Of a stretch of DNA of 64,000 bases, positions 3,498-39,000 are shown piece by piece; positions within the stretch are counted from its first letter, which is position 1; every line of letters begins with the position of its first letter. Under the pieces are notes generated by a model, which had not been told where the DNA came from, did no database searches, and worked only from the letters and a program-made list of their open reading frames with translations. The position numbers and the translations under genes are program-made. Source of the DNA: Lineus longissimus (lineage: Eukaryota; Nemertea; Pilidiophora; Heteronemertea; Lineidae); assembly GCF_910592395.1 (NCBI RefSeq), contig NC_088315.1, positions 5,954,501 through 6,018,500 on the forward strand, written 5' to 3'.

Positions 3498-3940
3498 CAA
3501 AATAGCTGGTAAGTACTAGAAAATTCACAGTAAGCCAGTCACCGGTGGCGCCGGGCGGCATTCGTAAATGCGGCCATTTGCCGTTGCCTGTAAGTCATCT
3601 AAGTCATTGCTGTATTGTAATTGGGCTTGTCCCGACGTCCCGCTGCATAAATAGTACAAAATCCCAAAAACCTTTCTCTGGGAATGTATCATAATATTAT
3701 AGTACATTAAACATTTGATTAAGGAATGTTTTTCTCCAAAAAAGGCACAGTATACGAGTTAACCCTTGAATGAACATGCTGATAATTAGAGCAGAGAACA
3801 ATAACTAGTACATGTAATATGAAATAGAAATCATAGACGCTCTATTTTCGTTTTCAGAATTCAACTCCCTCGTTTCTACAACAAAATCGTTGAGAGCCTG
3901 CTCAGGAATTTTTACAACTCACATCGGTACCGGCTTGGAA

Positions 3941-14135: not shown

Positions 14136-17100
14136 CTACGCGTTACAGCATGGTGTGGATGTTGACTTCTTCGGTCTGTCGTCGTTATATCTCAGTTGAA
14201 GTCCTGCCGCTTGGACTTCTATATCTTCGTTTGTCCGTAATATTCTGAAATAGGAATAGTGAGCACATCTGTTAATAATCCACATATCTTCCATTGAAAC
14301 AGTTTTCCCGGGTTAGGCCTAATCCCCAGTATCTATTGGCTAATACCACTCCACATACGTCAGCATTCTCCTAGCAATTAACCTATTCAGCATATCTAAA
14401 AATAGAACTCAGATGTGGTCAATTCCACTCTGCAGTGCATATAAATACCTATATACCATTAAGGCCTATGCATGTATCAGTTTACGTGAAATTCTGGTCA
14501 AGTTAGAAATGTTATGAAATTAGGGCCCTGGGACTACAGACCTTGGTTCTGATTGGCTGATTTCAACCAGGTGATCACAGAGCAGGCACGGGAATGGCCA
14601 AAAAATATGTTCATAGCTTGTATGGTTCCTGAGAACAAGGAATGTGATGTGTCGAACTTGCTAAAGTTGAGTGATTTAAATCATTTTAGCAACCAAGAAG
14701 TTTGTCATGAGTGAATGGTTCGTCACCAAAATATTTTTTTACCTAATATCGAAATCGCTTATTGATTCTTACTTCCAAAAAGCTACAAACATGGTCCATT
14801 TTGAAAATGGGAACGCTGTCCTTCAAGTGGCAGAATAGAGGAACATAGTCATCAAAATCATTGACGAATCATCAAAGAACACATTCAATCTCATTACCTT
14901 GCTAAATCGGTAACGGCCTCTAATATGTTGTTTCCATCTTTGGCGCTGGATTCTATGAATAACGCATCAAAGCTCTGCAACGTTAAGAGAACAACTGGTG
15001 TCAAGTGTGAATGTCCATGTCATTCTTATGGAGCCCTCGTACTACAAGCTTTAAGACATCATATGTTTCACGCCTTCAGAAAGTGTTATTAGTTACGGCC
15101 AACATCATTTACCATAACCAAGGCTGCCGGAATAAAATGTTGGGTGTAACAATCGTAGGAGATAACGCCGAGTTAAGTTAATGCAACCGTAAGTGACAAA
15201 ATGTGTTCCGAACAACAAGGCCCCAAGTGCGAACAACTCGTATATACTTTTTAGTATATATTCAACATCACTAATGACCAAACATATCGAACCCACTCAC
15301 CTTGGCCAGCCTCTCCCCGTCAGATGCCTTCACCGTCCGTCGACCTTCCGCCTCGTATTCTTCACGTAAGTCGGTCTTATTGGCCACCAACATGATGGGG
15401 ATCTTCTTCTGGGCGCCATCCTAAAAGACATAAGTGATTTTCTTGATTAGAAAACGTAGGCAAGATTGTGGTATCACCAACTGCGTAAAACGAGTGATCA
15501 AACCAGAACTATATCTTTCCGATGATGAACAATGGCATTCATTTTCCGGTCGCCCTGCAATTTTATTCAACTTTAGCGCTGCAGCTTCTAACATCTTTTC
15601 TCACACATAATCCTTTTCTCTTCAAATAAGTTCGAGTTGAGGCCGCAAAATGGCCACTCAATAGGGGACAAGCTCGTTACGTCTAGTTGTCCGAGTTCGT
15701 ATTTTTGAGGAATATCCTAGTGAAAATCAGCGCCACCTTTTGAGATACTGATACCCTGTGTAGTTACACATGTTGCTCGGTTACCCATATTTAATGACAG
15801 GATGAAAATAGGTTCCTCATAGGTTACAGAAAAATTTCTAGCATCTACATGTACTTTTCGATAAAAATGCAAGCCCCACCGCAGGAAAAAAATGCATTCA
15901 AAAAAAGAAGAATAGTTCGATAAGGACTTTGCAGCATGTCTTCTCATCGCCAAAAAATAGTCTCCTAAAAAGTACAGTAGAAAAATGGCAGTTAAAAAAA
16001 CCTTATAAGCGTTGCTTCTGGTCTGGTTCTATAGCGAAGATAGGTGCCTATAGTTAAGGGACAGATTTGTCAAATCCAAAGCCACACAGAAGAGTTGATA
16101 TCAGTATCAACATGCACACTACGGGTATATAGAAGAGACTGAGAATTACACACACATGCGTTTGTTAAATGTGTCGACCTTCTTTTCAGTTGCGTTCTTT
16201 TAGGATTTCATAGATATATAGATGATGAAATTGTGTGTAATTCCAGCCCTGCGGTCAGTACGTTGGCCATTACTAAGATAAGCAGGTCGGAAATGTTGGT
16301 GAATTTGTCACTAACAGAGCCATATCGTGGGTAAGTTGCATAGAGTCTGTCAATGCCTGCCTCCGCATCTCGGTTTATGCTGAATTTTCCACAAGCAGAA
16401 TCCAAAAGGTAAAGCACGATGCGGGGGACTACCTATCCTGTAGAATATGCATCGAGTATCCTGTGGACATTTGTACGCAATTGACAGGTGCAGACATTTC
16501 CAAGAAAGAAGAAATGGTGGTCTTTCTCAAGACTGACAGAGACATTCAAGACGTCTCTTTAAAAGTGTTGTTAGACATTGGGTACCTTAATGCACATTCT
16601 ACACAACTTCAACGAATCGAAGCATCCTGTTCGTTTGTTAGGAAATGAATGCTTTTCAGAACACCGATTTGTCTACGACCAACAAGGTATATAGACAGGA
16701 GACACCACTTTTAACCATAGTCAGAGAAGGCACACGGACTTACTTGGGAATCCTAAGGAACAAGCATAAGAAAGAAATATGTTAGTGCTGTGAAACCACT
16801 GAGGATGGACACAGGGAAATGTATTACTGGTAGCTCTGTGCAGGGCCGCAGCCTATGCGGAATAGCGGCCATTAATTACAGAACGCCTCTTGAATTTATT
16901 CAGGGAGATGAGTTGATCCATCGCCAAACGATGTATAGCCCGGCTACGCTGGGAAACCAGCAGCAGAACTGTTGGCCAGGGTTATGCTCCCACCACAGAC
17001 CTCTTTTATGGCCGGCACCGAGGTGCGTAGTAATTAGGGTCCTGGTCAGCTTCAACGACCCTTAACCGAAGTGTTTTTTCCCAATGAGAGATAGATAGGG

Positions 17101-18021
17101 TACCAGTGTTAGACAAGCAGCCTTCCGTTGATTACCCCCATGCTACGGCCCTGCTGAGAGACCCGAAGTAGGAGGGGTATCCAAGGTGAGACACGCCGAA
17201 GTCTTTCTCAGTCCTTAAAGGGTTCTAAAAGAACATAAACGATATGATATCATAACATCCTACCTCGACGGCCTCGACCCAGTCCCTAACATTGATGAAA
17301 GACCGTTCGTAAGTACAGTCATAGAGCAACAAAACACCGTCCGCTCTTCGAAAGTACGATTTCGCTATACTTCGGAACCTGAAAAAAAGGATATGAGATA
17401 GACAACAGATCTTTTTAAACAATCCACTTCATGATCAAAGAGGGTTTGCAAGTACAGTCATAGGTCATAGGGCGTACTTGCAAACCCTCTTTGAAGTACG
17501 ATTTCGCCATACATCGGATATGGAACTGACGAAAGATACATGTGTAATGAAAACTCACTCTATATCAATTTCATTTTCATTTTTAACCAAATCTGTGTAT
17601 ACAAGTGCACGTTCATAAAACTGTTGTAGAGTAACGGTGTATGCTGTGGATTTCGACTGGTCCACCATTATCCTGTAAGGCAAAGCTGCATGATCCGCGG
17701 CCTTGCCGACACGGTGGTATCGCATCGACGACGTCGTCGCAGGGTGGCCTGATGCCTACATGGGTGCGGGACATGAAGATGATGAAACTTAACTTACCTT
17801 TCCTGGCCGGCAGTATCCCACAGCTGCAGCGCAATCACTCTGTTGTCAATTTCTATCGTCTTGGTCTGGAAATCCACGCCAAGGGTCGAGTTAAGGTTAT
17901 TCACGAACTTCCCTTTGCATAGTCTCATTATGAAACTGGACTTTCCGACTGCTGCGTCCCCTGCTAGTACTACCTTGTACATTCGCTCGGGTTCCTGGTT
18001 TATAGGCTTGACTTGCACCTC
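14136..18021 (-). CDS. RASEF: RASEF-like Rab GTPase domain and prenylated tail
   Basis: Exons 17798-18021, 17264-17378, 15301-15420, 14898-14974 and 14136-14244. G1 is GDAAVGKSS, switch I holds [10 protein letters not shown]3 is WDTAGQER with the catalytic Gln kept, then [21 protein letters not shown]4 is NKTD and G5 is ESSAKDG. The last exon ends in TPCCNA and TAG, a double-cysteine geranylgeranylation signal like RASEF's CCNG. A nucleotide-switching, membrane-anchored GTPase is expected. Confidence 0.93.
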
Positions 18022-21000
18022 CTAGATGTGAAAGGAACTTTTGATTATCTCATACTAAGGACTTTAAGTTCAAGCAAGCAATATCGATTGATGTTCGAAA
18101 TACAACTCTGTGCCAGAAATGACAAACAAAAGTACACTTGTATATTGTGATAAACCAGACAGTAAACAGTAAAAGATGTACTGATTACTAAATATTTTGA
18201 AGGTTACATATTTTTGCATGTACTCCTCATTTACGCTCTTTCAAGGTCGTGCCCGGTGGTCTCATAAATGTTGAACTACTACTGCATTGGCAAGGGCAGG
18301 CAAGTTGTTAGTTGCAAAACACCGAGGCTAAACATCTATAGCGAGCAAAAGGTTAGTTAACTGTTAGTTAAGTAAGAAGTAGAGAACATCAAACATTTTA
18401 ATACTAAGTTAAAAAACACGGTACTCTAAAGCATAAGGTATAAAAATTGAGTATCCTCATGTTGTGTATTTCTCTCTCACGTCCTCTCCAAAAATTGGTG
18501 TGGGATAATCTCTTGATAATCATGAGCCTTAAGCCAACGTTTTGATATGATGACCTCGTTCTGATTGCCCTTGCTCGCCGGGCATAGATGAACCCACGGC
18601 TCATGTCGGAGGAAACGCCATGGCATCATACAAACCTTTGGAATTGCTGGTAGCTGACGCCTGGCATTTCTGACCTTGACCGATTTCATACTACTTCCTC
18701 TGCTGCTAGCGACGGAATGAGGACGGCTGTGACTGGGTGACCTTGACCCCGACCTTGACCTCCTACTCCGATATAAGTCGAGTTCCACCTCAGTGTCCAT
18801 CTCGTCATGGGAGTCTGGGGCCTGGCGATTAGACTGGTGGTAAATACGGTGTTTAGTAAGTAAGCCACCTTCACCATGAGCAAAGCAAGTGAACACCTCA
18901 TCTATACATGTACCTATAGTACCCTAATCTATACACAGATGTTAAACTATAGAGTATATAAGGTTTGGGCAAGAAGAAATCGCAGATAAAAGACAAAGTA
19001 AATGTGATCAAGTTATGAAACTTAAGTAAAAGAAGGAAGATAACAACCTCATGGCAATCACAAAATGTGCTGATAATGACCCCTGAACTCTCTTCTGTTG
19101 ATGCGTCAAGTCATTTGAAAAAAGACGGTAAAAGGCATCAATTCACCTCTGTCTCCGTTTCCGTCTCCATGTATCTGTAGGAATGGCGATCACCATCAAA
19201 ACTTTGTGCTTCAAACTCGGAATCAAACTCATTCAGGTCCCGCAGGGTCGAATGGCCACTATCTGCAAATATATAACAGCGTCGTGTCAGGAGTTGTCAT
19301 AAGACGGGCGCCTCTTTACCAGTAACCGAGTTGTTACGTAATCACTTGAAGACAATAAACAAACGTAGAGACACTGGTGTCAAGAAAGGAAAATTATCTT
19401 CGTCCTTCGTTTCGCACGCGACTTGTGAACCAAAGCCAGATTCCTACATGTATCTTAGCGGCTTTATCAGAATATCAACCACATGGCGCTAATCTCAATA
19501 CCCAAGTTTCACCGTTTTAAGAACTTTTCTAAAACATTCCGATACAATTAAAGCTCTATCGGTGCAAGGATGTATCAGGAACATCGGACAACTTGGTGTC
19601 GCCCACCCACTGTCAATGCCAAACCAGTCTAGTTATAATCACTTAATAGACGCACTGGATGAATCATAACAAGCCTAATTCTATCTTCACAAGAAAAATC
19701 ATCTAAGAGCATAACACTAGTACATGTAACAAGCGTCTATATTTAAATGAAAACACTCGCTGTCTATCAAATGAATGATCAAATAATGGCAATCCTTTTT
19801 TAAAAATCACGTACAGTAGTAGTTATGGCAACCAAAAGTCATGAAATGTCTTAGTCTTGATAATTCAGGGCCGATAGACCTTGTGAATTATAAGATGACA
19901 GAACAGCGAATAGAGTTAGTAGATATTTCTTACGCTTACAAAAGTCGATAAATGTTAGTACTCTACGACAGGCTTACCAAACACGGAGGAAACTGACATG
20001 AGTACACCTAGAGAAGAAACTCATATCGTTAGGGTGTGACACATACTGTCGAACCGTCTCTGGGCTGTCCAAAAACAGCCTGACGATGTGCACTTACATG
20101 TCATGTAAGTAACGTGCAACTTGTAAACGACAGAATACTTGTAACATATTTAAAAAACGTCTATGCTTGTATTTTGTCGCCGAAAGACACAACCATGGCC
20201 AATTTTGTTAAAGCATTTAAATAATGACCGAAGAATTTGAATAATTGATAGAGAAAAATGGATTGGTAGCTGTTAGAGTGCTGCAGGGATAATGTCCGAT
20301 ACTGCATATACATTTGTACATATAACCTACAGAGTACTTAGTATCTCGCTATACGGCGTGCATGGATCGGTATGGAGCACTTTGCATCCCATCTGAATCT
20401 TTGAATCTCGGCTGAGAGGTACCATCCCATAGTTTAAAAAAGAAGCCCAATAGGGCTTTTCAAAAGATCAAAAACCTTTATTTTTAAGAGTGTCCATAAA
20501 CTGTTTTGGATCTGCTCTTCACCATGCGGCCGATTCTTATGTGAAACGGGTCCTTTGACGAACAGATCATTTTGGCTCAGGTGTTTCCATGTATAAGCGT
20601 TCCAGTATCTTTCATATGGGCTCATAAGTGTTTGCGCCAGTGAAATGCATGCACATTCACCACGGTCCTACACTTTATCCTGACATGTATTGATCCTGTT
20701 TTTGAGTGTTTCGTGGAACTCGGAGAGCTTGCATCGAACCCATACACTATTTCGATCAACAACTAGTGTATCCATGTATTGTATGCTAAGTTCTGTATCG
20801 GAAATTTCTACATGGAGCCATGGATTGCCTCGAGAATCATATCAACGAGCCAAAGTTGCCACACCACACTGTTATTGTTGGGGGAAGTGCACTGGTAGGG
20901 ACTGAGGGCAATCGTCAAAAACCACAAAACTCACCAAAGTCCTCTGGTAGGCTGTCCTTGTCGATGCTTCTCTGTCGGTACGGTCGCCGCTGGATGGCCA

Positions 21001-24000
21001 TGGCTGGGTCACAAATGGCCAAACTTTCCTCTTCAGGTAACGAGGAACACACACTCCTCGGTCTGGAATAATATCATTGATCCATTAAGGTTCGCTAAAC
21101 CATTTTGCCTCACCAAGTTTAACCATCCCATGCCTTTTACATGTGGCAGTCCGAATGAGGGAAAGTTCGATGACGACCCGTAGAAATAATTAATGCTGTT
21201 CATTCAAGAGCTGCCGACGAAAATTCGTTTACACTGAGGGTTTTGCTGTATCGATGTACAAGGGCCCACCAAATAATTCAAAAGCGTAAGTGTGGTGAGA
21301 ATGTTGTTATGTTGCTTTATAATGCCGACTACAGGCTTCTCATGTCTTGCCTACCTTCCATCCGCCCCGCTGGCTAAGTAGGCCCCAACGACAGAACCTC
21401 GGCCTTCATCGAAACGACTGGGCGGCTGTCAAAGAGAAAAAATGTTTAAAATGCTTAAAAAGTTTAAAAGAATTCAAAAATCTTTATTTCTAAGAGCGCT
21501 CTTGTTTTTTCGTGGCTTTTTTCTCGTTAAAATGATAAAACCCCTGAAGGTTTTTGAGATTCCGAAGAACCTTTCAGTTCGCCGAGGAACCTCAAAGCGT
21601 GCGTCAAAAAACCTTAATTCTGAGCGTGTATCATTTCTTTCATCCAGCTTCGGGTGATAAGTCTGTTCCCAAGGACACATTTTGCCCTTTCAATTAAGGG
21701 GATTTTCCTATTTCTTTGGGGAAATAATAACGATACTTCAAATGATATTCGTCCTTCTGATGCTAAAGCTGATATGAACAGGACATTAGTGGTTGCCATC
21801 GATGACTTATTTACAGATAATGAGTTTTGAAACTGGCCAAGTACTTGTTTCGAGCCAGTAATCAAGCACAACATATACACTTGCCATTCCTTTTCATTTC
21901 CTGAGCCATTGCTCCTTGCCGATTTAGTATGCCGTCTAGACCACCACCGTCCCAGGGGTGTTATAAGACCTAAACAGGCCGGAACGTATCCCCTTATTTA
22001 TGAACTGGACGTGATGGGCAGTTCTGCGAGACATATATATTTCTGTTGCTCTTAACGCAGGCTAAAGAGTGTTTCGTCGATTGAGAAATTATTTGTTGGG
22101 AATATTATTTCCTATTCCTGTTGTGGCGTGAGAAATGTGATGAAAACGATCTACTTGGATCGTATTTGATTCAAAGAAGTTGTTCTGCTTTTCCTAGGCG
22201 TCTCGCCTTTTTTCCATCAGCGCTTCTAGTAGTGAAGCTACGTTATCGGTGAAATTAAATTGCGGCCTAAGAAGACATATCGTGGGTGGGGATTCGGAAG
22301 TCAGATTCAATCAGTCGCCGTTCATTTCATTTCATCATAATAGAGCTCAACCACAAGGTTAAGTTTATCTAAAAAATGTGAACAAGGCCTTCATCGACAC
22401 TGGCGTTTCACGCGAGTATCATGCACACCCCCTTATTTTCTTATTTCTACAGCGAGTTGCCCTTCAGGTACATAGGCCTTGGGCGTGATAGGCAATGTCT
22501 ATCCACAATAGCCTGAAATGCTATTGTGGATATTGCTTATTCTTTGAAAGAAAGACAAAGACAACACCCAGATAGAATGTAACAAAGTTTAAACTTTAAT
22601 AGCAAAACTGCAAGAAGCCAAGCGACATATTAATAGACGGCAAGAAATTATACAAATTGTAATGAAAATGCAATTATCATAATTTTTCAATTGATAAAGA
22701 ACTCAGAAATCGCGCATCAATAACGCACGCGACGCCAGTATCGTTTCATGAAGATAGCATTTCAGGCTCATGTGCCAATTCATAACGCAAACAATGAGGT
22801 TTCATTCTGGCGTATCAAGAATTCGAAAACACACCAATGAAATTGAAGAGTTTGATTACAAAATGCTACAAGAGGTATTTTGTCATAGCTCCATTGTTTC
22901 AATTCCGAAAACCTAACCCAAAAGTTCACAGTGGTTGTCGAAGATGCTTTCTAATGTTTACAATATTGTGTCACCAAATTCTTTGATATATTCATTCGGA
23001 TACAGACAAGAAACATTTAGACACTTTTAAAGCGCTCTTGGCATGAAAACTTAAAGTGTTTGGATGTGGTGGCGCGGTTGTGCGAAAATATTCTAATGTT
23101 ATTGGTGGGCAAATCCAGTTAATGTGGTCATAGTGACGCAAGTGGTGAAGTTAGCAGCTTACATCTGATCACACAGGCCTACCTTCCAACTTTTATCCGG
23201 TTCAGGATAGCTGAAGGAAGAGACGTCAAATGGGTTCCAGGGTGAATTCTCGGACGTTGTGACTGGAGTGTGACTCTGACCTTGACCTTGAATTTGGACA
23301 GATTTGCTTTGGGTTGTTTTTGTTAATCTACTAGATCTAGTTTGAGGCACTGAGGTGTAGGCTTTCGAAGTCTGTCCGACAGCTCTGTTTGTTGGATGCG
23401 CTCCTGATGTAGTTGCTCTTGTCGTCGAGGTATTGATGTTGACCAAGCTAGATTGTCCGGAATTTGAGTCAGATACCTCAGTTTTGTTTAAGTTATTAGT
23501 GCCGAGTTGTGATAGCGTAGTAGTATTGTCTCCATACTGCCTGCAAATGTAATCTGGATTTGACGGACAGACACTAACTCCCTGAGCTGCTGTCTGCTCT
23601 GATGTATATGACGTGCTACCAGTGTTGCCATACGTTGGCTCTTGTGGATAAACTCCGGCTTGCATAGCTGGAGTGTTGATACCGGCGACAACCTGTCCAA
23701 AGACCTGCTCGGACAGAGTTATCCCGGCAGCACTGGAATCTGTCCGCTTACTGCTTTCAATTTTTTTTTTAGTATTGGTACTTCTGTCATTCAGCTTGGG
23801 ATCAAACGCTTCACTTCTCTCAAACGAAACTTTCTGGCTAGCGTCCATATCAAATGTATTCATGTGATAGATCTTTACCGGTGTACACGTCCTTTTTGTA
23901 GGGCTTGATGCTGTTCCTTTGTCTCCTGACTCCGAGTCCAAGCTCACTGCCTTTTCGGGCAAGGTCCTCGGCGAGGGAATCGCGTCAGGTTCACCGTAAC

Positions 24001-27000
24001 CACTGTCAAAACTCAATGCTTTGGCTGCACTCAGTGCCTGCGCACGAACTGGTGTGGCCTTGGTGACGGTGAAAGTGTTGACTGATGTTACACTTGTGAG
24101 ACGAATCGCATTTCTGACGTTTCTGTTGTCCATGATACCATTATTGGTATCGTCAAAAGGATCCGGAGTAGCATAGCTTGGATTCATCGAAGTTTCCTTG
24201 CTGGTATAGGCAAGCCCTGCATCATTGGAACTATTGGTTCCATAACTGGAATGCATGTAAGTCAGCTTGCAATCCGGTTTAACAGAGCAAATCCTTGTAG
24301 TGTCACCAGATTTTGCAGTGGTGTAACTGCTACTGGAACTGGTGTAAAGCGAGTTCTTGGCTACTGATCCATGGCTGGTTGGTTCAGATGTAGTATCATT
24401 AGTTTCTATCAGATAGTTAATCGATTTGGCAATCGATTCCGCATAGTTTCCCAGACTTTTATACAAAGGTGCTGGTTCGATGTGAGTCGTTTTAGAGATG
24501 TCCATGTCGTCAATACACCCAATACCATGGTACGAGTCCTTCCTTTGCTTAAGGGTAACAGAGCCTGACATAGTTTCTATCCTCTGTGTAACTTGACCTG
24601 TACCTTTACTGGGTGGAGATGAGTTTGCAGAAGCAGCCTCAGAAATTGTTCCCTGATGCTGATCAGAGGTAACTATCACTGTGTTTCCAGAATAAGCTGG
24701 TCCTGTCTGTGGAGTTTGGGATGAAGTCCTACCCCTTGGTCTGCATTTAGTTGTCCTCGACCATGAGTCGATAGCGAGTTCCTCTTGCTCTCCTGTCTTT
24801 TTTCCACAAGTTACAGCCGCCTTTTTTTGTGTGATACTGCCCGCTGAAGAAGCATGACATCTACTTTCACTTTTTTGCTGTGTCAGCGGGCAAGACACAA
24901 TAGTTTCATCTCTCATCTCGTTATCAACAGTCTGAGTTTCAATTGACGTCATCTTAGTAGTTTCATGACTACTCGAGGTCCCAGTTGTATATGACGTCGT
25001 TGTGGTTGTACTTTGAGTGATAGTGACTTTACTCTTCTGCATACTCGAAATATTTCCATTATTTCGATCATCGTTTCCTGATATATTGTTCACATCAGAA
25101 TCAGTAGTATTGAGCATCGTTCCAGGTGTGGCGTACTGAAAACCCGACTGGCCTCCAGGCGGTTGGGATGTCGTACCCCCTATCCCGGTTCGATGGATGG
25201 CATTCTCCATACATGTTGTCAATGAGGCTATGGTAGCATTACTGTTGTACCCCATCGGGCCCTCGCGATGCTGATGAGATGACGTAAGGCGACTATACCC
25301 CGTTTCACCTTTTGCCTCTGACGAGTGTGTTAGAGGGAGGCCAGGGCTAGCATACCCCTGGGGCCCAGACGTAGTTATGGAACTCCCTTTGGGGTCCCCA
25401 TATGCTTGTGGCTGACGGGCATGAGCTGATGCAGCTACACCTTTGCCGTGATCAAACTGATGAGCCAGATAACCTGCAGATTGCATAGTATTTATATTTG
25501 ATCGATTTTTCATTGTTGTGCTTCCAATGTTATGTGCTTCTTGGCCATAAATCATATTGACCTGCGATCTGATATCGGAAGTAGCTCTTGTTGGTCGTGG
25601 AGAGGCTGTCCCGGGTATATTAGGCAGAACTCTCCCAGATCCTGGCCTGGGCGACTGGCGCCCAGGAGATGATCCGCAAACAGCAGTATTGACTTTCAGT
25701 GAGTGAGAACCCGGCCGTATTCCACTGGTCGATATATGGCCCCCGAGTTGCGGAGGCATCTCATTGTGGACCGTCTGAAGGGGATATATAGGGTTTCCTT
25801 GAATCCCAGTTGTAGAACCTTTGGTATTGAATTTCATTGTGTTTTCGACGACGGTTAAAGGTCCACCTGTCTTCTGCGATAGCTTGCTGTTTTGGGAGTC
25901 GTAAACCCTTTGAATTATTTGTTCATTTCCTCCAACTACTCCTGGGCGAGATTGTGATTGAAACTGAGTTTGCACGAGTGTACTGGATGGGTACGACGTG
26001 GTCGCTTGGTTTGGTCTAGTCCCTTGAGTTCCTAAAGCCTGATTTTGCATACTCATAGTAGTATCTGAACCTCTCGGATACCCTTCCAGTGTTCCGCCTA
26101 ATTTGGAACGTGTTGGGCCATGAATATGTTTGTTACTTCCAGCTTGCTGAGTGTTGTCGATTACAAACGGCGCAATCGTCATCTCCGTTAAGCCAGTTTG
26201 CTGCGAAGTCATTCCTCCAACATGAGACTGAATGCCAGCGTTTGACTGATTCCCAAATCCAAAGGTGAAACCTGGCGCTTCGTTTCCTAAGATATGAGTT
26301 TGCATCCTGTTATAATCAGATGATTGCGTAGTGAATGTTTCTGCACTGGGCCTAATTGATCTGTTGCCCGGCGTAGTAGTTCTTGTCCCCGTTCCATAGT
26401 GTTGGCCGCCTGATGACAGATGTTTTGCTGTTGTTTTTGAAGACCCTGTACATATAACTGGACGGGGAGAATCATCCAGTAAAGACGGAGGCATCCTTCC
26501 CTCTCTCAACACTGTTGACTCACTGCTAAGTTTTTTCATAGCACCCAACAGCTCTGGTGGAACTGAACCTGGTCTCTGGACGACTGGGTGGCTAGTCGGA
26601 GTCATTGGTTCTTCTACCATGGAATGTGGCCTCGATCTTCGTCCAGCTGATGCTGATTTTGCAGGCTCAATGCCTAAGTTTCGGTTTTCTTCTAGATAAG
26701 GCGTTGGCGTAGGTACACGATCGGGCTTCATCATTTGGTTATTCCCGAAACATCCATCCATCAAACTTTGGATCCTGCCAGGATCTAAAATCGAATGCCC
26801 TGGTCGTATCTGCTGGGACCCACTAGGAAGGGAAGGTAACTGTCTCCCAGAACTTTGAGGTCTGCTGCTCTGGCTAACTCCTACAACTCCATAAGTTTCA
26901 TTGCCATAGCTCTCAGCAGATGCCTGCCTCCTATTTAGACTTGTCCTTTGCGAAGTACCATACTCTGAGCTCTCAGATGTGGTTCTGCTCCTTCTCAAAT

Positions 27001-30000
27001 TCGACCTGCTTGGACGCTCCGTCGCTGTTGAATCAAAACGCTCTAAATTTGCCTGTAAACTTGTGTCTCCATAACTCGACTTCGGTTTTACTAGACCTAA
27101 CACAGCAGCGTGCTCAATATTTGGTGTGATGCGACTTTCTTCTATTCCTGTAATCGGTGATGCAGTCAGTGATCTATGACCGGCCTTGCGATGACTGGAC
27201 CTCTCCACTCTTCTAAATGCAGAACACTCTGCGGCTGATTCCGAATTTGACCTATAGTAAGGCGGCCTCTTATCGTACATGCTTTCTGGGCGGACTATAT
27301 CAGCTTGGAAATGCGAGTGGGACATACCATAGTCACCGCCTTGATCCAGAGACAATGACTTAAAATGTGACTTCTCAGAGTAGGCGAGGGTCGTCCCGTA
27401 TCCACTGGAGTTACGGTTGGTACCTTCATGCTGATCACGTGAGCTTCTTGTCCCATGTCTCTTATTTTGGCTGACGTAAGTGTCATCTCTGAAATTCGCA
27501 GCAGTGTCTTCATACTGATGTCTACCATGATTAATATTTGGAGACTCGCAACGATTGCTGAGCCTGCCTGAGCGACCAGCCTTAGCCAAAGTAAATAACT
27601 CGGTGTTACTTCCAAATCGAATAGCGTGTGGATTCGGTCTTTCCCTAGACTCATCAGTAACATTTTCCACCCTCGAGACGCTGCTGTCCCGAGTCCCCCT
27701 GTGACCTAAATCAGCTCGGTTTCCTCGCCCTCTTCCAGACTGATCAATTGGTTCTGGACTGTACCTCAACGATTCCTCTACTAATTCGTCATAACGCGAC
27801 CTGGAACCATACCCTCTTGGTGGTTCGCTTAGGTCCCTACGACCCGTCCTCGGGTTATAAACTCCGGATTGGCCGATCATATCTCTACGACTTGTCCTCT
27901 GACTATGATAGTCCGGTTCAGTGACATCTCTTCGCTCTCCTCTAGGACTATAACCCCCGGACTGATCAGTAATCTCCCTTCGACCAGTCCGTGGGCTGTA
28001 ACTGTCCGACGGTTCAATGTTAAATCTACGACCAACCGAAGGACTATAACCACCTTGTTCACTCAAATCCCTCTGACCAGACCTGTTACTATATCTATCC
28101 TCTGATGACCCCCTCTGCCCTGTCATCGGGCTGAAACGTCCATCTGCCCTTCCTCTCGGACTGTAGCTACCAACTACTTCGGATCCACTCTTATGATTTG
28201 GCTGAGGACTAAATCTTCCGCTTCTATCGACATCATATCTCTGATTGTAACTGGCGGACTGCTCAGACAAGCTCCTTTGCAGTGGTACAGCTCTTTGGTT
28301 TCTCCCCATAAAATCATCTGCTGCGCTCATTTGGCGTTGATTTTGATTATGACTCCCAGTATTACTATTTATTTTTAGTATACCCCCTCGTTCCTGATCT
28401 TGACCAAGTATGTATGTGTCATCTATCGTACGATTCTGGCTGACTTTACTACTAATCCCGTATTGGTCCATTCTCTGTTGATTATAGCCATAACTATCCG
28501 ATGCATTTCTCTGGCCTGACATAGCTCCTTGGCCTGACTGATTTTCCATACTTCCTTGGCCTTGGCTCCCAAAGGTCCCAGACATATCTTTCATACTCCC
28601 CTGCCTTGGAACGGAACTACGACTACCAGGCTGTCCTGTTGCATTGCTCGGTCCTGACATAGAACCATATCCAGCTTGGCTAATTCCCATAGGACCACTC
28701 AGCGGAAGATCATTCCTCTGGCCTGGGATCGAGCTGTACTGACCAGTAATTGTACCAGAGCTACACTGTGCTGGCCTGCCAGGCACATTCCCAAGACCAG
28801 GATTTGAGTTATGGGCACCAGACTGCTCTTGATAATTACTGGGCTGATCTGTGACTCCTTTCTGATTCATCAACGTTCCAAATCCTCCAGAATAGTTCAT
28901 TTCAGTTTTGTTACCTTGATTATAACTACCAGAATGACAAACTTCAGTCCGCTGGCCCTGCGCAGTGACAGAAGCATAGTTTTTAGACTGCTGCTGTTTT
29001 ACACCCCTATATCCGGACATTGATCCACCAATTGAACTCTGACCCCTTAGCTGGTCAGGCATTTGCCCATAGCTTGGGTTTTGGCCAACCACGCCTACCT
29101 GACCCGAACTACTATATCCTGAAGTATCACTAAAGCCCCTTGTTAAAGGTGGTTGTCGATCTGCAACCCTACTCTGATCTGGTCCATAGCCTAAAGGCTG
29201 CCTCAACGTGTCGCTACTTGGTGGATTGATATTCCTCTGCCCAGTGGAGGGACTATACGTTCCAGACTGGTCAACACCGGCCCTTGGACCAGCCTCTGGC
29301 CTGTAGGCCCTATACCGATCTCCTACATTGCCTTGGCCTTGGGTTGGGGTATTTCGAGATTGGTCCGACAACTCTCTTTGTGCAGTTCTTGAGCTGTTTC
29401 CACCCTTTTCGCTTACTGCACCCCTTTGATCCCGAGAAAGACTGGACGTCTCCACTGCGCCTCTCTGCCCTTGCTCAGCCTGTCTCGGCTTTTGACTTTG
29501 AGTCCCAGACTGCTCCGTTCCCTGTGACCTGTATATTTTTTGCACCATCCCGCCCGGACCCCCTGGTCCTTCATTCGAATAAAACATAATTGGATCTGTG
29601 CTGTCCTTGAGCGAGAGACTGTGACTTGTTCTTAGATTGCCTCTTCTACTACTCCGGCTGTAGCCTGATTGGTCTGGCCTATAGTTGGTTCTATATTCAG
29701 ATTGGATCCTCCTCCTCTCCTGACTATGACCTATTTCATCTCTCCTCCTATCGTCTCTATGATTCTGTTGGTCCTTCCTATAGTTAGTACTATCCTGACT
29801 GTAACTAGTTTGATCTCTAATACTATCCTGAATAGACTGATCTTGTCTTGACCTACGATGACTATTTTTAGACTGATCTGGCCAACTATTCTCACTAGTT
29901 CCTACGGTATTCTTTCTACTATCCTGATTATATCCCAAGGTACTATCCCTCCTTTTATCCTGACTAAATCGCGAGGTACCCCTCCTACTATCCTGAGTAT

Positions 30001-33000
30001 ATCGCAATGTATCCCCTCTCCTACCCTGAGTATAACCTGAGGTATACTTCCTACTATCTTGACTATATCCTGCTGTATCCCTCCTACTACCCTGGTTATA
30101 TTCCGAGATATTCTTTCTGGTATCCTGACTATATCCTCCTGATGTATCCCTCCTACTATCCTGGTTATATCCTGAGGTATCCCGCTGACTACCGTGACTG
30201 TATCCAATATTGTCACTCCCACTGTCCTGACCTAAACTATCACTGTACTTTCCTGATCTATCCGATTCAGAATAAAATCCTTCGTCACCCTCAAGCCGTG
30301 TCCTGTGTCTCCGATTCCAATTGTCTTCTGTATTATTTGATGAACTTCTGTTACTTGTAATACAGTGGCATTCCGCCAAGGTTTCTCGAGTGTATTGCCT
30401 GTGTAATTTCTGATGACTGTTGCTTGTATCATGATCCTTACACCCTGAACATTGGACGTAACTACCAAACATAATGTGATGAAATCAAAAAGTAATTAAT
30501 TTCTAAAGGCACAATTTGTAGCACCATATTGGAAATGTATCTAAGTTTTAAAAAAGGTCCAGAAAATGATTACTAAAGACTACTAAAAGTTAAATAATAG
30601 TATATCACATCCTTTGACTTGCATAGTAGTGTGAACCATTTCAGTCATTAAATCTGAACGTGCATAAAGAAAACTACTATCTTATATCACAACACCAAAT
30701 TCATAGGATGTTATCAGCATCAAACTTTCTAATACGACATCAAAACTTGAATAATCCATTTAAATATACTCCATGCAGCCACGTAAAGTACATGAAAACC
30801 GCAGCCACAATATCATGAACATCACGCAATATCAAACACTTGAATTCCTGTTTGTAGTGAACTATTTGCCAGAAAACTGTACTGTAATCCAATTAATTAT
30901 TTATGTTTATCGTTTTATGTTGCAATTCTCATCTGTCATACAAAGTGTATCCAACGCGAATGAATAAGCCATATCCGAATTTATTTCATAATCCAATTGA
31001 CGTTTTGGCGTTTATGCTACCGACAGGCATACCACATATCACAATCCTTCAACGTTGTTTCGCGCTTGTCTTTAACGTTGTTCATGTAACTAAATTATTG
31101 TGCTCACACTGTTCGCTACTTGTAACGATCAAAGCGGAAATTAATGTTTTACAGAGTGACTTCCCATCTACAACATCGATCGATTGTTTTAGCTGGATGT
31201 CCCCCGGGAATGTCCTAAATATATGTCGTACACATTTGATATCCTGTAAACTAGATGGCTGTTTCAAAGATGTAGATGTCCTAACGTGATGACAAGACAC
31301 GATTCTCTTAACATCTACAGCTGTCCTTATGTGATGGATTCTTTTTCCTAGTTCACAAAATATTTTCAGTTCCTAGCGAGCAATGCACCTATGTTTGAAC
31401 ATTCCATGAGACGTGAAAACAAAATACACCACAACATCAGATTTGTTAAGTACACTTCTAGCAAGATATACTACTACGTTAGAAAAGAAACTGCTGCACA
31501 TTCATGCAAATGTTTTCTTTTTCTGAAGAAAATCCGAGGTACTCCATTGCTTCAAAGAAAAGCAAGTCAAACAGTTGTGCCAGCGTTGATCCATTACTAT
31601 CCAATGAAAACAGGGAAAATCTTTGTGCTCTCTACAACGTCGGCATATAATTTGCAGTTAAATTTGGTGCTTTGTCTGGTAAACTCTATAAGATGCGTCC
31701 ATAACAAATTCTTTCAGAAGTCATCCAGTCCTCGTTCGCACGGATCTGCCGAAAATTCATAGACTGTATAACATTGTGCGTTGAAAATGAAATTAATCCC
31801 AATGGTCGCATTCGCAGACAGAATAAATCCAGGTTTGTTGGTGTACGGTAATGTTAGCTGGTCGCTCCCCATGTAAGAGGCTATCCCTGAATTAAACTGC
31901 TATCGAAGATGATTACTTCCACAATAATGATTGGAATCTTTCCAAAGAGGTGATGTCATCTATGGGATAGTGTCCTTATTTGCATAGTTGTCAATACACA
32001 TTTTTATAGTCTAAATCATTCGCTCCAGTCACTAAAACATCCAAATAAACATGTCGTTACACTACGTATGAAACTAAACGATATGCAACATGCACGGCCT
32101 AAAATCGGCAAATCCTCGATACAGAGTGCATCACAACATTCATGTATAGCTTCGCTGAGTGTTGGCAGTCATCCACGCAGTTAGCCACGACGGCTAAAGC
32201 AATTCCTACTTGTCTCTAAGTTAGAATAAATATCCGACAACAGCCAACGGAAACCTATACACACAGCAGTGGGATAACTAGCACCACAGGCGTTTAATTT
32301 ATCAGACCATGCCAAATATCCATTTGGTTTAAACTGATGGTGTTGCTGTTTTTCGAAGAGCTCTCATGAAACCACTCCGTTTCACTTTCGTAAAGGTCAC
32401 ATTATTTCACCGTCGAAATGTTATCAGAGCACCAACAGGATGTCGCTATGCCAACTCGATGTCAAACAGTCTGAGCCTTCGTCGTTTCGTTAAAGATTTT
32501 GCGAGATCGTGCCCCAGTAAGCGAGCTAGTCCGTCCATAGAATGATCGTATATTTGGCACGACTGCAGCCTCACGACACCAGTAAGAATGATTGTGCTAA
32601 GTAGTCCTCCTTCGTGCTTATCTCCTAGTTGACAGATGACTGAGAAGCTGAGATGGCAGCTTCTTATGGCGCACAGACGCTTCAGTTTCTTTGTATGGAT
32701 GTTGTGCCTGTCACTAGGCGGGCCATCAGTCATTCCAGTGCAAAAACGCCTAACCGAAAAAGTGCTGGTCTCTATAGCGGAATTGGCACTAAGCTACACT
32801 AACATGATGGGCCACGCCAGAATAATGCAAAGCTCCGCCAGTCAGCAGTTTTCCGCACACGGTACCGTATTCCCTTGTGGAGAAAAACATCGACTTTCCG
32901 CCCAGAGTGACTACATGATATTTCACGCATGCCAATTCCATGATAATAAACATGAAAACTTCATCAAAATGTTGCGCGGTGGATCAATTCCTGTACACGT

Positions 33001-36000
33001 TTGGAGGGAAATCAACATCACTTCCAGTACATGATATTTGCATGTCTCGACTAGCCTTATGCGTAAAGCAAGATAGCTCCGCGGGTCTCGGCGGTTTTCA
33101 ATCGAAACGAAGCGCGGAGAAGACTCGTTGCTATTTGACTAGATATTGATGTACGACCGGCTATTCGTCAGACCAGAGCGAACATGATATACTTCGAGGG
33201 CATGCTGTTAGAATGTCCGTTTCTGTATTTTCTGGCGGTTTTGATTGACTCTTTCTCAGCCCCTTTTTGGAAAAAAATAGATGACGAATGCCAAACAATC
33301 AAGAATAGATCGGGACCAGGCAACCTCATCTAATACTTGGTGTGATATCATCACGCCATAGTAATTGTTAATTTTCTGAACGTTTCTTTAACGCAATGCT
33401 ATTTGATCATAGGCACTAGAATTTGCTCCAAGCAGTGAGTAAAAATAACTTTGCCAAAGACAAAAACAGACATCAATCAGCATTCAAAGGCATCCTCTAT
33501 CTACTGGCAGTGCGTGATGGTAGTCCAGGTTGTAATTCACAACATGGCTTCAATCATCCGACCAGTACGCCAACGAGTTCGATATAATTACTTGCCGGTC
33601 TTTGAAAAACGATTACACGAGCTCAGAGGATGCCGCGCTGAATGCCAAAGGTCCGGGACATCTAACAAGCCACCAACATGTTTCCTCGCACTATGTTTAG
33701 GGCATACTTAAATATTTCCCGATGGATGGTCGCGTAGTCAATGGAAGCTCCTGATCAGATTAAAAAACAGCTCTTTTATCTTTGCCCTTTTGTGGATGCT
33801 CTTAGTTATTAAACAACCAATTCCCTTGACGAACAAGAAATTGATTCTGTAGCCGATACGGCCAAAGAGCGAACGTTTGCTGATGTAATATCAAACAAGA
33901 GTGACACGGCGGGCGGCATTGCTTCAGCTGCGGAATTCACGCTATTCAGCTTGCAAGTTCCCTCGGCCCATCTATCGATTTTATAAAACATTGCTGTGCA
34001 AGCCGTATATATAAATACTAGTGTACGATTTTGTAAGTTTTTCTGCCTGTTTGGGCAAGTCCATGCAAAGATGTGCCTTTACACAAGAATTTTCCTCCTC
34101 TGACAAGGGGGATTTCTTTTTTGCATCGCTTTCTCCAACGCCTTATTGCGCGTCACTGAACAAATCCCAGGATGCGTGTAACGATGAAAATTGTCTGCAT
34201 TTATCTTAATGGATGCCACGCAGGGACTTATTGGATCACTCTATCAAGGTGCCAACATTCTATCCCATATCCAAGAAGAGGCAATTTTTGCTTGTAGTCA
34301 TTTTTGCTTGTAGTTTTTAATCTAAAAACCTGTCATCGCAAAATACATTATGCATGCTCTGAATTGATAAAGTATATCAAGTGTGAGTAACATAATATAT
34401 GACATTGTAACTTGTCATGTTTTATTCAAAGCCGTCTAGAAACGGAGGGGACGACGGGATCTGGGAGGTGAAGGTCAAAGACTGCCACCAGGTGGTAGCA
34501 TTCGAAAGCTGTCTTACCTCTGACTTGTTTCGCTTGTGATTTGATCTCGTCGCATCGAGAGCCGCCCGTAAGTCATCATTTGTGTCGTGGAGCCTTTTGT
34601 TCGCATCGCTGAAGAGGCAAGACGAGAACATTATAACGCCACGTAGAAAGAAAAACAAGCAACATTTCGACTTGTTATGCCAGGCTTTTTCCACATTGGT
34701 TTCTATGGAATACATACATGTATAATTTTGACGAGCACAAATGTATTTGAAAATAGGTACTGTACATGTATATATGTAATCGTCTAAAAAACGTATACAT
34801 GTACGCATAAAGATAATTTGTTTCAACACCAACAAATCCATTTATTCGTCTAAAACAGTCACCCCGCCGAATTTCTTTCAATACCAATCTGCCAAAAAAT
34901 ACAGTATAGATATGAATGGTGTTGGGAATTGCATTCAAAAGAAGCACCCGTGGTTCAAGCAGTGGGTTACACAGTGAAAAAAAGCAAAACCCAATACCAT
35001 TCCTTTCATTACAAAACACCTTGGTAATTCACATAGAAAGATCCAAACGCAAAGATGATAAAACTGAAAAGAAATATGGGAAAAGGAGCGTTGAAACGTT
35101 CGTCTCCCTTTCAAGAAAAGATAGTGTTAACTATCCAGGATTCAACATCGTGTCAAATTTTAGACAGGCATTCACCCATTCATGCATTTCATTGTTTGGA
35201 TTTTACCTGTTGTAAGCAAAGTAGCTTTGATTGTATGTCCTGAAGCAGACCAAATCAAAATCATTTCGAGGTAATAACAAAAGCAGCTTTGCCGCTGCGT
35301 TTAAATTTCACGTATCTGACTATCTGTCCTTCTTCCTGGGTAAACTGCATCCAATACATGACGCAGGTGGTCTTAACAAGTAAACACGTCTCAATGCGGT
35401 TGCCAGATAACATCACGCTACTTTTCAAAGAGAATCTCTTATGAGCTGTTTCCTTTGTAGTAACGGAAAAACTACAGATGAGAAAACTATGAGGCTTGGG
35501 CTCTACAAATTATGGCTACCACACGTCTAAGGTATTAATGTGTTGGCAACTCCATGTATCAATGTTGGTGGAATGTTAGAACATGTTTAAAGACACCTCT
35601 ATTGCAGGTAAGTCGAGTCGTGGCCAAAATTGGTTGCAACGTTGAAATTGACTCACATCGTAAAGACAAAACACAAATAATAACTGGATGTTTATGTACT
35701 GCCATGGATCCAAAACTACATGTGAGGTTCGTGATATTGCCCAAAGGAAGAATGTCATCAAGGGTTAGCGAGGACGATGCGGTGGAATTAAAAAAATCAC
35801 AACTTACTGTAATAAATGCAGCTGTCTTGTGAGATTGTCTTGCTCCTTCATGTATTCTAATAACGTGTCCTTCTCGCTGAAAGTTCGAGGGGAAGCTATG
35901 GTCAGGATAGGCGTATACAGAAAGCCAAGCGGAGAGGGAGTTGGAATCCTAGTCGCAATGTACAAATACTGATCAGCTTTGGAACTTTTAGAAACCGATG

Positions 36001-39000
36001 ATGACACATCATCATTTTGATTGGAAAATTCGCCGTCGTGTATCGTCGAGTTGCTCATTTTTAATTCGGTTCCTTTTGGTATATCATGAACATGGCTTTT
36101 GCAAATCTCCGGGTTCACAAACTATATGCTAGTATATTTACAGTCACAGTTAGCACGAGTGTACATGCAGTATGTTACAACATGATTTCATGATCATATC
36201 ATATTTTGGGGACATATCCCCAACTTCAACCATCGATTGCACATTTAAATGGCCAATTAGGGCACTTGAACTTATTTTCCACAGGACTGAACACGATTAC
36301 TTTTACCAATTTCTAGTGAACTCCTGAAAAGTTCAAGACGGAGATAGCTGAGTTTAGAAAGGTGGAACAATGTACACTCAATTTAATGGCAAATGCCGTT
36401 GCAATGTAAACATGTAGCTCAAACGCACTTTCAATAAGCCAGGAAGAATATCAATGAGAGGCTGATAAATTACAAGGCTTACTTTTTAAGGTCTCTACAT
36501 TTGTCTTCATATTGCTGTCGTAATGTCGCCAACTCGCTCCTTAGTATGGCTTGGTTGGTTTGAGCATCTGTGATGTCGCTTTTCAACACTCTGTTCTCGG
36601 TCGACGTGTCCTCTAATCGCCGCCTCATGTCCAGTACGGTCTCGTCCGATACCTTCTCGCTGAACTGCATTTCAAGCTGAAAAAAAAGTTGAAAAAATAA
36701 TTCACAACTAATACAACTGTTTAAACTGTTCAATTAAAGAACAGCGTTGCCAGCAACAAATTTTATCATTTAATTTGACTTAAAGTTGACAGTCTATATC
36801 AGGCTGACCTTTTACAATCAAAGCCGATAGGAGGAAGAAACATAACATATTAACTTAATTCCATAAACTTTTCAAATACGGCTAGTACACCGTTGATGCA
36901 CCTTAGCTATAGTGTTACCGCTCGTCTGATGGCGATGCTTGGAGATGTACTCTTACCTGCTGTAACCTCTTCAGATTCGTCTGTAACTCTTGCATCTCCA
37001 TCTCTAGCGCCTGTTTCAGCTCCAACTTCTCCTGCTCCGCTCTCTCCCTCTCTTCCTTCCGGACCCTGTTCTCTGTCTTCTGCATCTGATGCTCAATGTC
37101 TTCTTCAAGCTGCCGTAGATGCCGTTCATGCGTCTCTTTTTCTCTACAAGAAGGTCAATAGCAGCCTGAGTTAGACGGGGTGAAATCCTCTCATAAATCA
37201 GAATGAGCGGCATTGTGGTGTGTTTTGTCTGTTCCTATAGTCTATCACACAAACATGCAAGTTCAGGGTCGCAATGAAACGTCAAAGGTACAGGAAAGTG
37301 AGCATAGCGACTTTGCGTCCGGTGGGTAAAGGGTAATTGAGTACCGTAATTATTTCAGAGATTATCATGTTCAAACGACAAATTCACTCACTACGGGGAT
37401 TCATAGTGTGCACAGCTGCAGCCCCCAGGAAACTTTATTGCCCCATTAAGATGTTAACGGTGTGTAGCTTTATTCTTATTCTAATCGATGATGGACATAA
37501 ATTTCGACTGCACGGTACATAGTGCTGGTCACGCTCTTGTTGTCGCGGTTTCATTTCATTTGTCTAGATCATAAGCAATTGACGTCCATATGTATGCGTG
37601 CGCAATGCGTTCGCTCCTGACGGTAATATCGCTATTTTGATTCATGTCACAAAGTATGTTCATTTCCGTGCAGACATACGTTTGTAATGTTCACGTTCGA
37701 TATAACTGGCGCCTGACTGCTTTGTGAAGATATGGCAAGGCGTCAGTTCAAGAACAAAGTTCTCCTCAGTGGCCCAGCTGTTGTGTTTCCACGTAAAATG
37801 GTGCCTACATACGTGGCCTACCCATTACATACTTTTGGGTGTGTTCTGAGCAGAAATAGGTCTAAACACTCCAGCAAAGCCGACCGGGTGACCAAGTGGC
37901 TTTCTGGCTTTGAGAGCCTTTACATAAATTTGATCTGGTGCAAATGTAGTGAATTTGATCCATGTATGGCAATGATTTAAAGAAAGAAATTCTAGTACAC
38001 AGTGTATGCATCAAACTGAATTCAGTTACAGATTCAGTTACAATATTCAATGGACTACTGCGAAAACATCGAACAATCAGACATGTGGATCAATATAAGT
38101 TTTAGAGTTCACACAGTCCGCCAGTTTTGACTTTTTCGAAGGACTGGAAGCACGGGGGTTTAGAGTTAGTAATGTGGTCCTCTTACAACTCAACCTGCTT
38201 GGGGTGGTTGGCGAATTATTACGTGACTAATAAATTTCTCCAACGATTAACCTAAGTCTGTGTCTCTCTCTAATAGCAGTAGTCGTTTTCTTCAAAACAA
38301 ACTTCATATTGTTAAAATCTGATAATCAAAATATCAAAATAAATGTCACCAAAAAAGAAATATTATCTGATACCAACCTTTTATATGAGCTTTCGAGGCG
38401 TTCATTTTCCAGCTGATGGAACCGTATGTCCCGTATCACGTCTAAGATGATCTTTTCAAACACTGGGAGTAGTTGTGGGTAATCTGTGTGGATGGTCTGG
38501 TACAGTTCCACCACTTGTTCTTGGCTGCAAACAACGAATCAAATGTAAACCAAAGACACAGATAATCTAAGGCACTTTAGGTACAGGAATGACTGGGCGG
38601 ATCATCCCAGGACAATTCATATGTTATCAACGTGTGTCTTCCTTACACCATTGGCAGTTTTGCTTAAAGGAATCAGAGTAAGACCTCCACCTCACGAAGA
38701 ATTTAAGTTGCATTTTTGAACATACTAGTATTGCAACGTAAAGACATGGAAACCTTACCCTCATATTCAAATAGCCAAATAATTCATTTTGTTAATGTTA
38801 CATGTATTTTTTCTTTACAAAACGCTGTTGTTGACACATTAGATGACAATAGAACTACCCTGTCGTAATCGACATCATTGTTAGTAGCCATTGATGAGTA
38901 TATCTGATTTGAACGGTGGCTGGGGAAGACATGGTGACCTTTTTTCTTCAATGACGACATTTATTTTTATCTCAGGCGCCAGACTTACAAAATGAGACGA

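What the first reader, a model, noticed from the sequence alone, without database searches (positions are those of the whole stretch)
23163..30472. RASEF/Rab45 orthologue with a ~2,430-codon single-exon disordered insertion
Seen: a ~7.3-kb frame without stops on the minus strand, whose 3' donor is phase-matched to the RASEF linker exon. The exons before and after encode the RASEF coiled coil and the linker/Rab domain. Known: vertebrate RASEF is about 740 residues with a short linker here. Inference: this lineage carries a ~3,150-residue Rab with a giant S/G/Q/T/R/Y-rich disordered region between coiled coil and GTPase. It could act as a condensate-forming, tether-like or scaffold segment under Ca2+ and GTP control.
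Basis: partly seen in the sequence, partly recalled or inferred. Interest (0 to 1): 0.88.

Follow-up and report, generated by a model that had tools for sequence, protein, structure and literature searches.

The report
Optional giant exon in RASEF gene
In a ribbon worm, an intron of an ordinary membrane-traffic gene (RASEF/Rab45) holds an unannotated 7.3-kb stretch that reads as protein and ends in plausible splice sites, so the worm may be able to make a Rab about four times the usual size; no RNA evidence was available.

Summary
The window matches the ribbon worm Lineus longissimus: its RASEF exons give that species' annotated 824-aa protein. The 7.3-kb open frame is real: 2,441 codons without a stop where 92 to 136 stops were expected, and its internal repeats diverged as coding sequence. 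The annotated isoform skips the frame, so a protein of about 820 aa is the standard product. The frame's 3' end carries two donors: one fits exon 7b in phase and repeats a 12-mer found elsewhere in the window only at 7b's own donor; the other fits the next exon. None of 5,008 control stops had both. The 5' junction is unsolved: no good acceptor fits the last coiled-coil exon. No homologue or annotation of the frame was found, no transcript data could be searched, and its fourfold-site GC differs from the gene's other exons. Best reading (0.6): an optional giant disordered exon, built like the long exons of giant ankyrins, spliced at its 3' end to the Rab half. Whether the product keeps EF-hands and coiled coil is open. 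Main rival: a nested gene.

The parts
45570..45952 (-). RASEF first exon 1a, EF-hand pair (resembles the first exon of several mollusc orthologues)
   Evidence: tblastn with orthologues; Pfam EF-hand; donor end read by hand
40926..41536 (-). RASEF alternative first exon 1b, EF-hands; used in annotated isoform X2
   Evidence: Pfam EF-hand; identical to P0002 residues 1-203
38378..38524 (-). Exon 2, coiled-coil region
   Evidence: in-phase model; model equals P0002 apart from one insert
36957..37143 (-). Exon 3, coiled-coil region
36483..36676 (-). Exon 4, coiled-coil region
35808..35876 (-). Exon 5, coiled-coil region (leaves phase 2; would fit an acceptor at 30461)
34518..34608 (-). Exon 6, last coiled-coil exon (leaves phase 0)
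23162..30484 (-). Giant open frame, proposed optional exon 7a; in-frame ATG at 30472, stop at 23161-23159
   Evidence: repeat divergence
29906..30205 (-). Array of about 11-residue repeats ([11 protein letters not shown] type)
27801..28100 (-). Second repeat family ([16 protein letters not shown] type)
26825..26845 (-). RQLPSLP, same pattern as RQLPAIP of the RASEF linker
   Evidence: coordinates computed from residue 1210
25613..25633 (-). RVLPNIP, same pattern
   Evidence: coordinates computed from residue 1614
24152..24163 (-). DPFD
   Evidence: coordinates computed from residue 2104
23225..23236 (-). NPFD
   Evidence: coordinates computed from residue 2413
23177..23188 (-). Donor TGGAAG|gtaggc, exon end 23183, phase 0, fits exon 7b; same 12-mer as at the 7b donor
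23157..23165 (-). Donor GAT|gtaagc, exon end 23163, phase 2, fits exon 8 (skipping 7b)
21355..21425 (-). Exon 7b, 71 nt, phase 0 in and phase 2 out, used in annotated isoform X2
20935..21062 (-). Exon 8, linker
19978..20007 (-). 30-nt exon encoding the 10-aa insert [10 protein letters not shown] of P0002
   Evidence: end read by hand
19147..19262 (-). Exon 9, linker
18636..18821 (-). Exon 10, linker with RRQLPAIP
17798..18021 (-). Exon 11, Rab domain with P-loop
   Evidence: Pfam Ras
17264..17378 (-). Exon 12, Rab domain
15301..15420 (-). Exon 13, Rab domain
14898..14974 (-). Exon 14, Rab domain
14136..14244 (-). Exon 15, C-terminus ending CCNA, with stop

Best explanation
The frame is a real coding sequence and most likely an optional giant exon of the L. 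longissimus RASEF/Rab45 gene. Shown here: it is open, its repeats carry the mark of selection on the protein, and its 3' end has donors in phase with each of the next two exons. Inferred: some transcripts include it and splice it into exon 7b (or skip 7b and go to exon 8), which puts about 2,420 disorder-prone residues before the Rab domain, while the standard transcript leaves it out. Inferred and weaker: the product also keeps the EF-hands and coiled coil (3,193 to 3,232 residues in the models), or starts at the ATG at 30472 and lacks them (2,794 to 2,811 residues). Working idea: as in giant ankyrins, the exon turns a normal protein into a long flexible scaffold. The Rab end would bind membrane under nucleotide control, and the chain would offer Y/R/Q/S-rich repeats, two SH3-type RxLPx[IL]P sites and NPFD/DPFD sites to partners.
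For: 2,441 codons without a stop against 92 to 136 expected stops. All 8 DNA-level self-matches are offset by a multiple of three, with gap totals of 0, 3, 6 or 9; pN/pS pooled over 434 codon pairs is 0.52 in the open frame, 1.38 and 0.85 in the others. Two donors at the 3' end, phase 0 (fits 7b) and phase 2 (fits exon 8); 0 of 5,008 control stops had both. The 12-mer at the first donor occurs twice in the window, both strands counted, the other time at the donor of exon 7b, a junction in the annotated protein. R.LP.[ILV]P twice in the frame, in none of 2,000 shuffles twice, and once in the RASEF linker. Precedent: a 13.4-kb frame in a Ciona ankyrin intron, absent from the gene prediction, proved to be an exon by PCR (PMC5135030).
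Against: The annotated isoform lacks the frame. No giant RASEF and no relative of the frame in the lengths searched. No good acceptor in phase with exon 6. GC at fourfold sites 0.36 in the frame against 0.63 and 0.59 in the RASEF exons. First 40 to 60 codons score near neutral as coding. In two of eight repeat rows another frame has a lower pN/pS, and the closest tandem match shows no third-position excess. Donor thresholds and motifs were chosen after seeing the sequence.
Confidence: 0.6

Rival explanations
1. A separate single-exon gene nested in the RASEF intron on the same strand: ATG at 30472, stop TAA at 23161-23159, a disordered protein of 2,437 aa that is not part of the Rab.
For: The frame has an ATG in its fifth codon (9.4% of 4,976 controls) and a stop of its own; no good acceptor in phase with exon 6; third-position composition unlike the RASEF exons.
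Against: Two in-phase donors in the last 25 nt, one identical in 12 bases to the 7b donor; the SH3-type motif shared with the RASEF linker. Poly(A) signals downstream (22600, 21488) are no more telling than chance.
Confidence: 0.22
2. An alternative last exon: coiled-coil exons splice into the frame, which ends at its own stop, giving an EF-hand, coiled-coil and giant-tail protein without Rab, as CRACR2A-S lacks the Rab domain.
For: Isoforms without the Rab domain are known for CRACR2A (PMC8303950, section read); the frame has a stop.
Against: It needs the missing 5' acceptor and leaves the 3' donors unexplained.
Confidence: 0.08
3. A coding frame that was once used and is now silent.
For: No annotation and no relative found; neutral-looking fourfold-site GC.
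Against: No stop or frameshift in 7.3 kb where 92 or more stops are expected without constraint.
Confidence: 0.07

Closest known systems
RASEF/Rab45 and the other large Rabs (Rab44, Rab46/CRACR2A)
   Same: EF-hands, coiled coil, linker and Rab domain; several isoforms; linker PxxP-type motifs that bind SH3 proteins in Rab46 (PMC8303950, section read)
   Different: In the 65 of 99 homologues where it could be measured, the stretch from the coiled-coil end to the P-loop is 190 to 408 aa; with the frame it would exceed 2,500
Long exons of giant ankyrins (AnkG, AnkB, fly Ank2, Ciona)
   Same: One exon of thousands of bases (mean 8,103 bp, n = 30), Ser/Thr-rich bias, repeat arrays in some, optional, and missing from the Ciona gene prediction (PMC5135030, passages and one section; PMC5422562, passages)
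   Different: The host is a Rab gene; top residues are S, G, T, R, Q rather than Ser, Glu, Thr, Asp, Lys, Pro; splicing and function untested

Membership tests
RASEF/Rab45 (large Rab GTPases): the host gene | N-terminal EF-hands | tested here: met
   Pfam EF-hand matches in exon 1b and exon 1a
RASEF/Rab45 (large Rab GTPases): the host gene | Coiled coil after the EF-hands | tested here: met
   By homology only: 99 hits, top ones annotated RASEF, covering this region; no coiled-coil predictor was run
RASEF/Rab45 (large Rab GTPases): the host gene | C-terminal Rab GTPase domain closest to RASEF | tested here: met
   Pfam Ras 1.5e-51; best solved structure 2p5s, RAS and EF-hand domain containing
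RASEF/Rab45 (large Rab GTPases): the host gene | Prenylated C-terminal cysteines | not testable with these tools
   The C-terminus reads CCNA; modification cannot be seen in sequence
RASEF/Rab45: the frame as one of its exons | 3' donor in phase with a downstream exon | tested here: met
   Phase 0 to 7b and phase 2 to exon 8
RASEF/Rab45: the frame as one of its exons | 5' acceptor in phase with the upstream exon | tested here: inconclusive
   Best phase-0 acceptor in 200 nt scores -4.42, below the gene's other acceptors; exon 5 fits 30461 (-0.01)
RASEF/Rab45: the frame as one of its exons | Transcripts that contain it | not testable with these tools
   No RNA data on hand; annotated isoform X2 lacks it
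Giant ankyrins | Ankyrin repeats and ZU5-ZU5-UPA core in the host gene | tested here: not met
   No Pfam family in the frame; only EF-hand and GTPase families in the 754-aa model. The likeness is of architecture only

The most novel reading that the evidence does not exclude
A ribbon worm makes a Rab GTPase of about 3,200 residues (an estimated 350 kDa) by optional inclusion of one 7.2-kb disordered exon between coiled coil and GTPase: a giant-ankyrin-style scaffold under Rab and calcium control, and another gene family made giant by a single long exon.
Probability: 0.35. Interest if true: 0.78.

Novelty: new variant of a known kind. Interest (0 to 1): 0.55.

Why it matters
Rabs are small switches, and the RASEF homologues found here are 450 to 980 aa long (which could only return 415 to 1,320 aa; one search found none of about 1,770 to 5,633 aa; 1,320 to 1,770 was not searched). 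A form with a 2,400-residue disordered arm would be a Rab that is its own long tether or scaffold. It would show that the long-exon route to giant scaffolds, known from ankyrins, was taken by a membrane-traffic gene too. Even as a nested gene it is a coding frame of over 2,400 codons with no counterpart found in the protein database searched.

Tried and rejected
An extra exon between 34518 and 30484 that could repair the 5' phase: none can be proposed at the threshold used, because no donor above 2.5 lies in 30490-34510. Chance open frame: rejected. Viral origin: one scan of viral contigs with six peptide patterns gave nothing, a weak test. Known domain in the frame: none in Pfam. TQT, SxIP, S/T-P and YxxPhi motifs: no more than in shuffled sequence. 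Wide conservation of the linker motif: only partial. R.LP.[ILVM]P occurs in 19 of 76 homologues (23 of 99 lacked the exact P-loop string and were dropped), and R.LP..P within 80 aa of the P-loop in 30 of 88 (11 of 99 dropped). The argument that skipping the frame breaks the reading frame (exon 6 to exon 8) fell when exon 7b was found. Own-genome search did not complete. Structure prediction was not used: without an alignment it says little about a disordered chain. Motifs, donor thresholds and the 60-nt limit were chosen after seeing the sequence, so those probabilities are optimistic. The splice-site matrices are approximate and come from memory.

Literature, all of it the held open-licence library: RASEF (170 papers, 40 listed, listing only apart from PMC8303950), 'giant exon' with ankyrin, Lineus longissimus with genome, Rab GTPase with giant isoform and intrinsically disordered (none), CRACR2A with dynein and RASEF (listing only), giant ankyrin with bilaterian and exon, five long-exon terms (none), Rab45 with invertebrate and isoform (one listed, not read). 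I saw no report of a giant RASEF in these listings and in the passages read; other libraries were not searched.
Full report
What the window is. Exons on the minus strand from 41536 to 14136 encode a protein whose best database match is the ras and EF-hand domain-containing protein homolog isoform X2 of Lineus longissimus, 824 aa. A model spliced from the window without the giant frame equals it except for one 10-aa insert, which a 30-nt exon at 20007-19978 accounts for. The window is therefore from this ribbon worm or something indistinguishable from it at these exons. Its published assembly spans 391 Mb, mostly in 19 chromosomes (PMC8593623, abstract and passages). What evidence the annotated isoform rests on was not visible.

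The host gene is an ordinary RASEF. It has two candidate EF-hand first exons, 45952-45570 and 41536-40926, five exons that match the RASEF coiled coil, a linker, and a Rab domain closest to the solved RASEF structure 2p5s. Tubulanus polymorphus, another ribbon worm, also has isoforms that differ at the EF-hand end (P0003, P0004).

The minus strand is open for 2,441 codons from 30484 to 23162. About 92 stops would be expected from position-specific base frequencies and 136 from overall composition. The next longest open frame in the window has 399 codons and matches a galactosyltransferase.

The frame behaves as coding sequence. It has an array of about 11-residue repeats at 29906-30205 and a second repeat family at 27801-28100. 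Repeats were matched by DNA, not protein, so as not to favour conserved residues. All 8 self-matches are offset by a multiple of three and their gap totals are 6, 6, 9, 6, 3, 9, 0 and 0. Pooled over 434 codon pairs, pN/pS is 0.52 in the open frame and 1.38 and 0.85 in the other two. Row by row the open-frame ratios are 0.55, 0.65, 0.54, 0.34, 0.46, 0.61, 0.96 and 0.48; the bootstrap interval lies below 1 in 5 of 8 rows, and in 2 of 8 another frame has a lower ratio. The closest tandem match has no third-position excess: 18 of 83, 24 of 82 and 22 of 82 mismatches at positions 1, 2 and 3. The second family does: 13, 18 and 37 of 61. Rows overlap, so the pooled figure is not a sum of independent pairs.

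Between the frame and the linker exon at 21062 lies exon 7b, 21425-21355, which encodes [23 protein letters not shown]. The annotated protein runs from exon 6 to 7b to exon 8 and contains nothing of the frame. Tubulanus has a short stretch at this place too. So the standard product is about 820 aa, and the frame is optional at most.

The 3' end looks like a real exon end. A donor TGGAAG|gtaggc (exon end 23183) is in phase 0 and fits exon 7b; a donor GAT|gtaagc (exon end 23163) is in phase 2 and fits exon 8, with the frame's own TAA inside it. Of 5,008 stop codons outside the gene, 0.84% have a phase-0 donor of at least 4.5 in the last 60 nt, 3.7% a phase-2 donor of at least 2.9, none both, and 1.2% have a TAA inside such a donor. 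The thresholds were set after seeing the sites, and the donor matrix is an approximate human-like one from memory. The 12-mer at the first donor occurs only twice in the 64 kb, both strands counted; the other copy is at the donor of exon 7b, a junction of the annotated protein.

The 5' end does not. Exon 6 ends in phase 0, and the best phase-0 acceptor in the first 200 nt of the frame scores -4.42, below the other acceptors scored in this gene (-1.69 to 10.0). About half of random frames do as well within 60 nt. Acceptors at 30461 (-0.01) and 30444 (1.31) need other phases; exon 5 would fit 30461 in frame, skipping exon 6. No donor above 2.5 lies in 30490-34510, so no intermediate exon could be proposed. 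An ATG stands in the fifth codon of the frame, as in 9.4% of 4,976 controls, so a transcript that starts just upstream is possible. The first 40 to 60 codons score near neutral against a model trained on the rest. All 6 joined models tried, with 2,794 to 3,232 residues, read through to the RASEF stop; each was built to fit the phases.

Against the exon reading. The full 3,219-aa model, with search words from its first 500 residues, found nothing at E 1e-5 among 6,402 candidates (about 1,770 to 5,633 aa). The frame alone found nothing at E 0.001 among 5,008 candidates (about 1,340 to 4,263 aa). Short transcript fragments would have been missed by these length limits. GC at fourfold sites is 0.36 in the frame (1,110 sites) against 0.63 and 0.59 in the RASEF exons before and after it (144 and 148 sites), 0.38 in the galactosyltransferase frame (162 sites) and 0.40 for overall intron GC. 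That fits a frame that is used rarely, or a different gene. Lack of annotation alone is weak evidence: in Ciona a 13.4-kb frame in an ankyrin intron was missing from the gene prediction and proved to be an exon by PCR (PMC5135030, section read).

What the segment could do. No Pfam family matches. Composition is S 14.8%, G 10.1%, T 9.4%, R 8.1%, Q 7.1%, and 93 of 119 windows fall on the disordered side of a charge-hydropathy line. [GS]Y[GSQNT] occurs 31 times against 11.2 in shuffled sequence. R.LP.[ILV]P occurs twice, while none of 2,000 shuffles had two, and the same pattern, RQLPAIP, is in the RASEF linker. That it resembles class I SH3 ligands is recalled knowledge. [ND]PFD occurs twice against 0.02 expected; TQT, SxIP and S/T-P motifs are not enriched. 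These patterns were picked after reading the sequence. The proline-rich region of Rab46 binds the SH3-SH2-SH3 part of Vav1, while the same review holds that Rab45 lacks such a region (PMC8303950, section read).

Conclusion. A coding frame of over 2,400 codons lies in the RASEF intron and its 3' end is built as if to splice into the Rab half. I give 0.6 to an optional giant RASEF exon, with or without the N-terminal half of the protein, 0.22 to a nested gene, 0.08 to an alternative last exon and 0.07 to a silent relic. RNA would settle it.

Noticed in passing
window 17528-17433 (minus strand): A decayed partial copy of Rab exon 12 (62 of 88 bases identical) in the intron just upstream of the real exon; its two halves look like an inverted repeat to the eye.
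   Followed up: partly
window 34510-30490 and 23160-21500 (minus strand): The intron segments on both sides of the giant frame hold no donor-like site above 2.5, against 1.38 per kb over the whole minus strand of the window; cause unknown, no shuffled control was run.
   Followed up: no
window 45952-45570 and 41536-40926 (minus strand): Two EF-hand first exons; the annotated isoform X2 uses the second, while several molluscs match the first; Tubulanus also has isoforms that differ there.
   Followed up: partly
window 3818-5017 (plus strand): Uninterrupted galactosyltransferase-family frame of 399 codons.
   Followed up: no
window 8413-9551 (plus strand): Two stretches matching the sodium:dicarboxylate symporter family, the first just under the family's cut-off.
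   Followed up: no
window 55224-55523 and 63711-63998 (plus strand): An exon matching the MYG1 exonuclease family and one matching part of the Ku70/Ku80 beta-barrel domain.
   Followed up: no
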